Of a DNA stretch of 10,941 nt, positions 8,493-9,243 are shown in pieces. The notes under the pieces were generated by a model. It searched no databases. It was given only the letters and a program-made list of their open reading frames with translations, and was not told where the DNA came from. Source of the stretch: Dehalococcoidia bacterium. GTDB lineage: Bacteria > Chloroflexota > Dehalococcoidia > UBA3495. Every line of letters starts with the position of its first letter. The first letter of the stretch is position 1. The position numbers and the translations under genes are program-made. The stretch spans positions 1 through 10,941 of the forward strand of contig PCAH01000173.1 in NCBI GenBank assembly GCA_002730485.1, written 5' to 3'.

Positions 8493-8543
8493 GTTGGCGC
8501 TCCTTTACCTCACAAGAGTTGGCGCTCCTTTACCTCACAAGAG
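8493..8543 (+). repeat. 25-bp perfect tandem repeat, two copies, upstream of def
   Basis: The unit at 8493-8517 is repeated exactly at 8518-8542, and the match extends one further base. It begins 10 bp after the priA stop. Each unit contains TTTACC (8504-8509 and 8529-8534); the second copy sits at the -35 position relative to the TATAAT at 8552-8557. The repeat thus lies in and just above the def promoter. Confidence 0.9.
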
Positions 8544-8557
8544 GGGTTGAATATAAT
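8529..8557 (+). promoter_or_regulatory. Sigma-70-type promoter for def
   Basis: TTTACC (8529-8534, four of six consensus bases) is followed after exactly 17 nt by a perfect TATAAT (8552-8557). Transcription would begin near 8564, leaving a leader of about 80 nt before the def start. The -35 lies inside the second copy of the tandem repeat. Confidence 0.65.
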
Positions 8558-8624
8558 GGTTAACGTCTCGATATTCCTGGGACAGAGCCTCATGGACAGA
8601 GGCCTCCGGCAACCTGAATCTCCA

Positions 8625-8637
8625 CACCTGAGAGGTG
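8625..8637 (+). promoter_or_regulatory. Small hairpin covering the def Shine-Dalgarno
   Basis: CACCT (8625-8629), loop GAG and AGGTG (8633-8637) form a 5-bp hairpin that includes most of the GAGAGG ribosome-binding sequence (8630-8635), which stands 8 nt before the TTG start at 8644. It might lower or tune translation of def. The stem is short and the tight loop may weaken it; chance is a fair alternative. Confidence 0.3.
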
Positions 8638-8643
8638 GCCCCC

Positions 8644-9243
8644 TTGGCAATCTTGGACATGCGCCTGCTGCCTGATCCGATTCTGCGCAGAAAGACCAGT
8701 AAGGTGGCGAAAGTCACCCCCCAACTGAAGACGTTGGTTGAAGACATGATCGATACCATGCGATCCCAGTTCGGTGTTGGTTTGGCTGCCAATCAGGTGG
8801 GTTCCCTTCAGAAGGTCGCGGTTGTCGAGACCCCAGAGTTGGAAGAGCCGTTGGTGCTTATCAACCCAGAGGTCATGAAGACGGAGGGTGAGCGCGAAGT
8901 TGTAGAAGGTTGACTGAGCGTTCCTGGCTATCGTGGTATGGTCATACGCTCCGAGAAAGTAAGGGTCAAACACATGGGACTGGACGGGAAGATCCACCGA
9001 TTCAATGCCGAGGATCTTTTGGCCCAGGCTCTGGAACATGAGATTGACCACTTGAACGGCATCTTGTACATCGACCATCTGGTCGATCACGAGAGTCTTC
9101 AAAAGATCACCTACGAACACGACCCAGAAGAAGGCGAGTTTGACGGCGAGTTGGAAGAAGAATACGTACACGACGAGGAAGAAAACAGCGAATTGGATCA
9201 GGCGTTGGCTGCGGAGATCTCCGCAAAAGACGATCAAAATTAA
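8644..9243 (+). CDS. def: Peptide deformylase with in-frame TGA at the active-site Cys (candidate selenoprotein; otherwise a nonsense-disrupted gene)
   Basis: Peptide deformylase removes the formyl group from the N-terminal Met of new proteins at the ribosome, using a metal held by one Cys and two His. All three family motifs are present. Motif 1 is GVGLAANQ at residues 44-51. Motif 2, normally EGCLS, here reads E-G-TGA-L-S-V-P-G at 88-95, and motif 3 is HEIDH at 132-136. TGA (8911-8913) occupies residue 90, the metal-ligand Cys position, and the protein has no other Cys. Both sides stay in one frame with no other damage, ending at TAA 9241-9243. I chose the TTG start at 8644 (MAILDMR.LPDPILR): GAGAGG stands 8 nt upstream, while the in-frame GTG at 8635 would overlap that site. 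Read through, it is 199 residues against about 170 in E. coli; the excess is an acidic tail from about 158. If TGA were a plain stop, the 89-residue product would lack two of the three metal ligands. Selenocysteine insertion, a recent nonsense mutation and a sequencing error all remain possible. Confidence 0.85.
8914..8951 (+). promoter_or_regulatory. Candidate bacterial SECIS-like hairpin just after the in-frame TGA of def
   Basis: The lower stem GAGCGT (8916-8921) pairs perfectly with ACGCTC (8946-8951). After an asymmetric internal loop (TCC / T), the upper stem TGGCTAT (8925-8931) pairs with ATGGTCA (8938-8944) through seven pairs, two of them G-U. The apical loop is CGTGGT (8932-8937). 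The loop starts 18 nt after the TGA and has G at its second position. This agrees with the general description of bacterial SECIS elements: a hairpin directly downstream, an apical loop some 16-37 nt from the UGA, and an early G in the loop. The same bases also encode conserved deformylase residues (SVPGYRG), so a chance fold is possible. SelB binding is inference. Confidence 0.5.

What the first reader, a model, noticed from the sequence alone, without database searches (positions are those of the whole stretch)
8644..9243. Possible selenocysteine-containing peptide deformylase: TGA replaces the metal-binding Cys
Seen: the def frame is intact on both sides of a single TGA (8911-8913). That TGA falls exactly in the EG-C-LS motif, at residue 90, with the other ligands in HEIDH at 132 and 136. 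No other Cys is present. Known: in selenoproteins UGA typically stands at a catalytic or metal-binding redox Cys, and deformylase needs this ligand. Inference: a random nonsense mutation would hit this one codon of about 200 only by chance, so recoding is a serious possibility. Cys codons TGC/TGT are one base from TGA, so a mutation or base-call error is the main rival. I am not aware of a characterised selenocysteine deformylase, but I cannot search.
Basis: partly seen in the sequence, partly recalled or inferred. Interest (0 to 1): 0.93.

Follow-up and report, generated by a model that had tools for sequence, protein, structure and literature searches.

The report
Selenocysteine peptide deformylase in SAR202 bacteria
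In three related bacteria the gene for peptide deformylase, the enzyme that removes the formyl group from new proteins, carries a TGA stop codon exactly where its metal-holding cysteine codon belongs, and that TGA is likely read as selenocysteine, which would make the maturation of most of the cell's proteins depend on selenium.

Summary
The def frame (8644-9243) is intact except for one TGA (8911-8913) at the metal-ligand Cys of the EG-C-LS motif. In each of those assemblies it is the only deformylase found, and fmt is present. Both also hold tRNA-Sec (TCA), SelA, SelB and a SelD with its own in-frame TGA. TGA also ends ordinary ORFs there and RF2 is present, so the code is standard. Ten database ORFs end exactly before this codon. 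A hairpin 18 nt after the TGA pairs fully in 3 of 3 TGA genes and 0 of 10 Cys genes, but its stability does not beat synonymous shuffles. Published tables of prokaryotic selenoproteins (119 families/subfamilies in a 2026 review) list no deformylase, and my library searches found no earlier report. Selenium has not been shown in the protein, and the window's own genome is not held.

The parts
8644..9243 (+). def (peptide deformylase) with one in-frame TGA; likely start TTG 8644 (GTG 8635 is also possible); stop TAA 9241-9243
   Evidence: TIGR00079 144.9 bits; database ORFs of this gene begin MAILDMR, i.e. at 8644
8911..8913 (+). TGA at the metal-ligand Cys position (residue 90); predicted Sec codon
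   Evidence: TGA also in L001 and L002, TGC/TGT in the 27 other loci where the motif was found; alignment to solved deformylases
8916..8951 (+). predicted SECIS hairpin: lower stem 8916-8921/8946-8951, upper stem 8925-8931/8938-8944, loop CGUGGU 8932-8937
   Evidence: upper stem 7 of 7 pairs in 3 of 3 TGA genes, 0 of 10 Cys genes; stability not beyond synonymous shuffles
8773..8796 (+). motif 1, GVGLAANQ
   Evidence: motif name recalled
9037..9051 (+). motif 3, HEIDH, with the two His ligands (132, 136)
   Evidence: HEXXH as metal-binding motif in PMC7683392 passages

Best explanation
The in-frame TGA at 8911-8913 is likely read as selenocysteine, giving a full-length peptide deformylase that is predicted to hold its catalytic metal through selenium instead of sulfur. 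Shown: the TGA, its conservation in two further genomes, purifying selection on both sides, one def match per genome, and the bacterial Sec machinery in those genomes. Inferred: the hairpin 8916-8951 would bind SelB with Sec-tRNA(UCA) and so outcompete release factor 2; Sec90 would join His132 and His136 in binding the metal (iron in the Salmonella enzyme). The likely advantage, untested, is recovery from oxidation: Fe-deformylase is very sensitive to peroxide and its Cys90 is a site of modification, and a selenolate ligand could be reduced again. As it is the only deformylase found and fmt is present, N-terminal maturation of the proteome would depend on selenium.
For: Same TGA in L001 and L002 at 84-85% protein identity; pairwise NG86 dS among the three 1.13-2.14 upstream and 0.44-1.03 downstream of the TGA, dN/dS 0.03-0.10 and 0.01-0.17. 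Single def in each, fmt present. tRNA-Sec with anticodon TCA, SelB, SelA, SelD with in-frame TGA. TGA ends 42 of 235 and 10 of 110 long ORFs in parts of G001 and G002 and RF2 is present, so no general reassignment. Ten database ORFs end exactly before the site. Upper hairpin stem complete in 3 of 3 TGA genes and 0 of 10 Cys genes, loop 18 nt from the TGA, inside the 16-37 nt range of PMC10778597 (passage). 8 of 9 informative hairpin codons identical in the three against 50 of 118 overall, p 0.004 uncorrected.
Against: No direct proof of selenium. The window's own genome is not held. Hairpin energy is no lower than in synonymous shuffles (p 0.15, 0.18, 0.49) and the longest run of identical codons has permutation p 0.079; a Cys gene (L079) reaches -12.1 kcal/mol in the same named structure, level with L001 (-11.5) and L002 (-10.6), and several Cys genes have lower minimum energies. 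The lower stem loses pairs in L001 and L002. U17 of the E. coli element is absent. No Rfam SECIS family matches at E up to 1. The relatives are assemblies from metagenomes of unstated completeness, so a second def may be missing.
Confidence: 0.92

Rival explanations
1. Sequencing error or nonsense mutation: the gene is an ordinary Cys deformylase miscalled, or a decaying copy.
For: TGC/TGT are one base from TGA, and close relatives L003-L008 carry them. Truncated def ORFs with ends elsewhere do occur in metagenome data.
Against: TGA at the same codon in two other genomes that differ from the window at about half or more of upstream fourfold sites; low dN/dS on both sides; no other def in those genomes; ten ORFs ending at exactly this place.
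Confidence: 0.02
2. The UGA is read through, but as another residue (Cys or Trp), by tRNA-Sec charged otherwise or by a near-cognate tRNA.
For: One database protein (P0002) shows W at the site, though a gene caller that reads TGA as Trp would give the same; its codon was not seen. Cys would also serve as ligand.
Against: Both TGA genomes hold SelA, SelB, SelD and tRNA-Sec together; TGA is a stop for ordinary ORFs; Trp cannot be the thiol-type ligand (general knowledge); a conserved TGA has no evident reason if Cys is wanted.
Confidence: 0.04
3. Split gene: two polypeptides, the second started at ATG 8938, form the enzyme.
For: ATG 8938 is present in all three TGA genes (M after PGYRG), whereas L003-L008 have L or T there.
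Against: The metal ligand and LSVPGYRG between TGA and ATG would be lost, yet LSVPGYRG is unchanged in all three. Met at that place also occurs in Cys-type proteins, e.g. P0020 and L081. I see no ribosome-binding site just before the ATG (by eye).
Confidence: 0.02

Closest known systems
Bacterial peptide deformylase (PF01327, TIGR00079; e.g. Salmonella Def)
   Same: Fold family, GxGLAAxQ and HEIDH motifs, residue numbering of the ligand (90), place beside priA in SAR202-type relatives
   Different: The Cys ligand codon is TGA; 119 of 120 database relatives listed have Cys there and one has W
Sec-containing SelD (selenophosphate synthetase)
   Same: In-frame TGA at a position that is Cys in homologues (recalled), in the same genomes
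   Different: SelD is part of selenium metabolism and its Sec form is long known; deformylase is a general protein-maturation hydrolase
Selenoenzymes with Sec as metal ligand: formate dehydrogenase and [NiFeSe] hydrogenase
   Same: Sec bound directly to the catalytic metal, thought to limit damage by oxidation (PMC13188914, section 7 parts 1-2)
   Different: Those are redox enzymes; deformylase is a hydrolase that does no redox chemistry and acts on new proteins in general

Membership tests
Bacterial selenoprotein | In-frame TGA aligned with Cys of homologues, conserved flanks | tested here: met
Bacterial selenoprotein | TGA kept in more than one species | tested here: met
   Window, L001, L002
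Bacterial selenoprotein | tRNA-Sec, SelA, SelB and SelD in the genome | tested here: met
   Met in G001 and G002; the window's own genome is not held
Bacterial selenoprotein | SECIS hairpin just after the TGA | tested here: inconclusive
   Geometry and upper stem fit in 3 of 3; energy not beyond synonymous shuffles; U17 absent; no Rfam SECIS match
Bacterial selenoprotein | Selenium shown in the protein | not testable with these tools
   Needs mass spectrometry or 75Se labelling
Peptide deformylase | Match to the family profile over its cut-off | tested here: met
   TIGR00079 144.9 bits, cut-off 103.95; NF001159 150.8, cut-off 125 (read-through protein)
Peptide deformylase | HEXXH motif with two His ligands | tested here: met
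   HEIDH 132-136
Peptide deformylase | Third ligand, Cys of EGCLS | tested here: inconclusive
   The codon is TGA; the residue inserted is not known from sequence
Peptide deformylase | Deformylase activity | not testable with these tools
   Needs an assay

The most novel reading that the evidence does not exclude
The sole peptide deformylase of a clade of SAR202-type bacteria is a selenoenzyme whose Sec selenolate ligates the catalytic metal, so that N-terminal maturation of nearly the whole proteome is gated by selenium supply; the Cys-to-Sec switch may have happened more than once in this group.
Probability: 0.85. Interest if true: 0.9.

Novelty: new variant of a known kind. Interest (0 to 1): 0.87.

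Why it matters
Most known selenoproteins are redox enzymes. Here Sec would sit, as a plain metal ligand, in the only copy of a hydrolase that is regarded as essential for bacterial growth. That would tie growth itself to selenium in this clade, give a direct test of what selenium buys at a non-redox metal centre (resistance to oxidation, metal choice, speed), and add a family to the prokaryotic selenoproteome that gene callers now cut at the TGA.

Tried and rejected
Own-genome searches failed: no genome is held for the window. The viral collection gave no relatives and no match to a TGA-def pattern. Rfam at E up to 1 listed a tRNA and one weak antisense family, no SECIS. The hairpin's energy is not exceptional: dinucleotide-shuffle z is -1.9 and -1.8 for the tight 44- and 45-nt stretches, -1.2 and -0.1 for 50 and 61 nt; synonymous shuffles give p 0.15, 0.18 and 0.49, though the exact apical hairpin arises in only 23, 30 and 114 of 5000 of them. 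So the case does not rest on stability. Two more genomes (G030, G037) showed a TGA in the def match, but both have Cys codons at the site; in G030 the first stop after the Cys is TGA 93 residues on, the gene's own end; in G037 it is TAA at 103 residues and a stop lies 90 residues before the Cys, so I take its TGA to be upstream of the start. Rejected: error or pseudogene, genome-wide reassignment of TGA, split gene (see rivals). A profile of seven of the ORFs that end at the site found 456 proteins, of which 120 were listed; of the 101 not listed before, none was seen to end at the site (in one search the site motif was found in 82 of the 101 and absent in 19, some of them broken ORFs). A tree of N-terminal halves puts five stop/TGA rows in one supported clade and the other four outside it, but one origin is not rejected (AU p 0.215; few columns, bootstrap not settled), so several origins stay a possibility only.

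Full report
What is there. By its named relatives the window is a Chloroflexota contig of the SAR202 type: the eight best loci are titled Dehalococcoidia, Chloroflexi or SAR202 cluster bacteria. I read the gene order as acs, MFS, LLM-like, GNAT, rplS, priA, def, CCA enzyme (names from my reading of the translations; only def was put to a family search). That order is kept in full in L001, L002, L003 and L006, and rplS-priA-def-CCA in L004, L005, L007 and L008. The def frame runs 8644-9243, is open but for TGA 8911-8913, and ends in TAA. Read through, it is a clear peptide deformylase. The TGA is residue 90, in EG-U-LS; the His ligands are 132 and 136; the gene has no Cys codon.

Is it an error? 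No. A scan of the genome collection brought 41 def loci. My motif expression found the site in 29 of them: TGA in L001 and L002, TGC/TGT in the other 27, including L003-L008 at 77-84% identity. Of 50 genomes in the family of L001's genome, 48 have a def match. Four rows show a TGA inside; of the 30 loci read, only those of G001 and G002 have it at the site, and the 18 matches without a locus show no stop inside. A tight TGA pattern occurs in 2 of 250 genomes of the order (the same two) and in 1 of 400 drawn from the phylum (G001; G002 was not in that draw), with no hit of the reversed control. The pattern asks for EG-TGA-LS[V/I]PG and would miss variants.

Metagenome proteins add to it. With the full read-through protein as query, 119 of the 120 listed relatives have Cys at the site and one, P0002, has W. 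P0002 is on an 820-base contig, its codon was not seen, and its N-terminal end differs from the others; a gene caller that reads TGA as Trp would give this W. With the N-terminal half as query, 23 proteins were found; 10 of them end exactly at the EG before the site (P0122, P0123, P0124, P0125, P0128-P0131, P0138, P0144). P0122 is the window's own cluster; P0123 is on 34 contigs. Some of the ten are shorter or longer forms of the same lineages. Which stop codon follows is not seen for these. Other truncated ORFs in the same list end elsewhere.

Selection. Between the three TGA genes, fourfold sites upstream of the TGA differ at 25 of 44, 20 of 39 and 29 of 40. NG86 dS is 1.13-2.14 upstream and 0.44-1.03 downstream; dN/dS is 0.03-0.10 upstream and 0.01-0.17 downstream; YN00, where it ran, gives up to 0.12 and 0.28. 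The part after the TGA is thus under protein selection, so it is very likely translated in frame, and the TGA has outlived heavy synonymous change.

Can the cell decode it? The window's genome is not held, so the two TGA relatives stand in. Both have tRNA-Sec (66-67 bits, cut-off 47; anticodon TCA by ARAGORN), SelB (348 and 350 bits, cut-off 242), SelA (557 and 563, cut-off 268) and SelD (377 and 375, cut-off 125). In one search all 12 genomes searched have SelD over the cut-off, with one TGA in the best match of each; the site is HCAG-U-AAKLS in 7 of the 8 loci that I gave to a script (the expression missed L108). Sec-type SelD is a known selenoprotein (PMC13188914 table), hence an internal sign that UGA is decoded as Sec in this group. 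The machinery is not peculiar to the TGA genomes: several Cys-def relatives have it too. TGA also ends ordinary ORFs: 42 of 235 of at least 250 aa in 421 kb of G001 and 10 of 110 in 198 kb of G002 (mechanical ORFs), and RF2 is present. So recoding must be local to the gene.

Is the gene needed? Each of the 10 genomes searched has one def match, and fmt is present in the three searched. Salmonella deformylase is called essential (PMC7683392, passages). No second deformylase is in the two TGA assemblies, but their completeness is not stated.

The hairpin. Counting U of UGA as 1, nt 15-21 pair with 28-34 around the loop CGUGGU, and 6-11 with 36-41. The upper seven pairs form in 3 of 3 TGA genes and in 0 of 10 Cys genes. 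The 18 nt between UGA and loop lie in the 16-37 nt given for bacterial SECIS (PMC10778597, passages). G23 and U24, named as key in the E. coli element, are there; U17 is not (PMC8659212, passages). In the hairpin codons 8 of 9 informative codons are identical in the three genes, against 50 of 118 overall (hypergeometric p 0.004, uncorrected); but the longest run of identical codons has permutation p 0.079, and the fold energy does not beat synonymous shuffles. The lower stem loses one pair in L001 and two in L002; the Cys gene L079, with five of seven upper pairs, reaches -12.1 kcal/mol in the same structure, against -14.5, -11.5 and -10.6 for the TGA genes; and several Cys genes have lower minimum energies in other folds. 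I count the SECIS as likely, not shown.

Evolution. In a tree of N-terminal halves (91 rows, 89 columns) the window's cluster, L001, L002, P0123 and P0125 form one supported clade (98/96); the other four rows that stop at the site fall outside it. Three changes are the fewest on the tree, but one origin is not rejected (AU p 0.215).

Literature. 'selenocysteine' with 'peptide deformylase' gave 8 papers, 'selenoprotein' with 'deformylase' 10, 'selenoproteins' with 'SAR202' none, and a broader mix 10 (listings and starts of abstracts only); none of these, by title, reports a Sec deformylase. 'Deformylase' does not occur in the held main texts of PMC12013277, PMC13188914, PMC9312934, PMC2398784, PMC1088965 or PMC1794560. 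The table of PMC13188914 (119 families/subfamilies by its own count; section 7 parts 1 and 2) and that of PMC9312934 list none. NCBIfam of June 2026 matched general deformylase models only. Supplements, most subscription papers and preprints were not searched.

Mechanism and rationale. In Salmonella, Cys90 takes part in metal binding and is required for activity, iron-bound deformylase is highly sensitive to peroxide, and Cys90 is S-nitrosylated (PMC7683392, passages). A selenolate there would keep the ligand set similar and could be reduced again after oxidation; Sec is thought to protect the metal in [NiFeSe] hydrogenase (PMC13188914). That this is the advantage here is inference.

Noticed in passing
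window 8493-8543: Perfect tandem duplication of a 25-base unit (TTGGCGCTCCTTTACCTCACAAGAG) between priA and def, not found in L001 or L002 at up to 4 mismatches.
   Followed up: partly
window about 8528-8556; L001 and L002 between priA and def: CTTTACCTCACAA followed by GTTGAATATAAT is kept upstream of def in all three (printout), a promoter-like or regulatory element.
   Followed up: no
L106, L107, L109-L113 (selD loci): SelD has an in-frame TGA at HCAG-U-AAKLS, with a predicted hairpin GGACCU..AGGUCC type after it: the expected Sec-type SelD of this group.
   Followed up: partly
P0002 (820-base metagenome contig): Deformylase with W at the Cys site and an N-terminal end unlike the others; perhaps a chimeric contig translated with TGA as Trp.
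   Followed up: no
window 8590-9237, minus strand: A mechanical 215-aa ORF runs antisense to def; taken as chance.
   Followed up: no
G001, G002, G003 (parts sampled): TGA is the rarest stop of long ORFs: 18%, 9% and 24% (in G003 narrowly below TAA at 26%).
   Followed up: no
G049:C45:106196-107117: SelD matches as two adjacent pieces, the first with a TGA, as if frame-shifted or misassembled.
   Followed up: no
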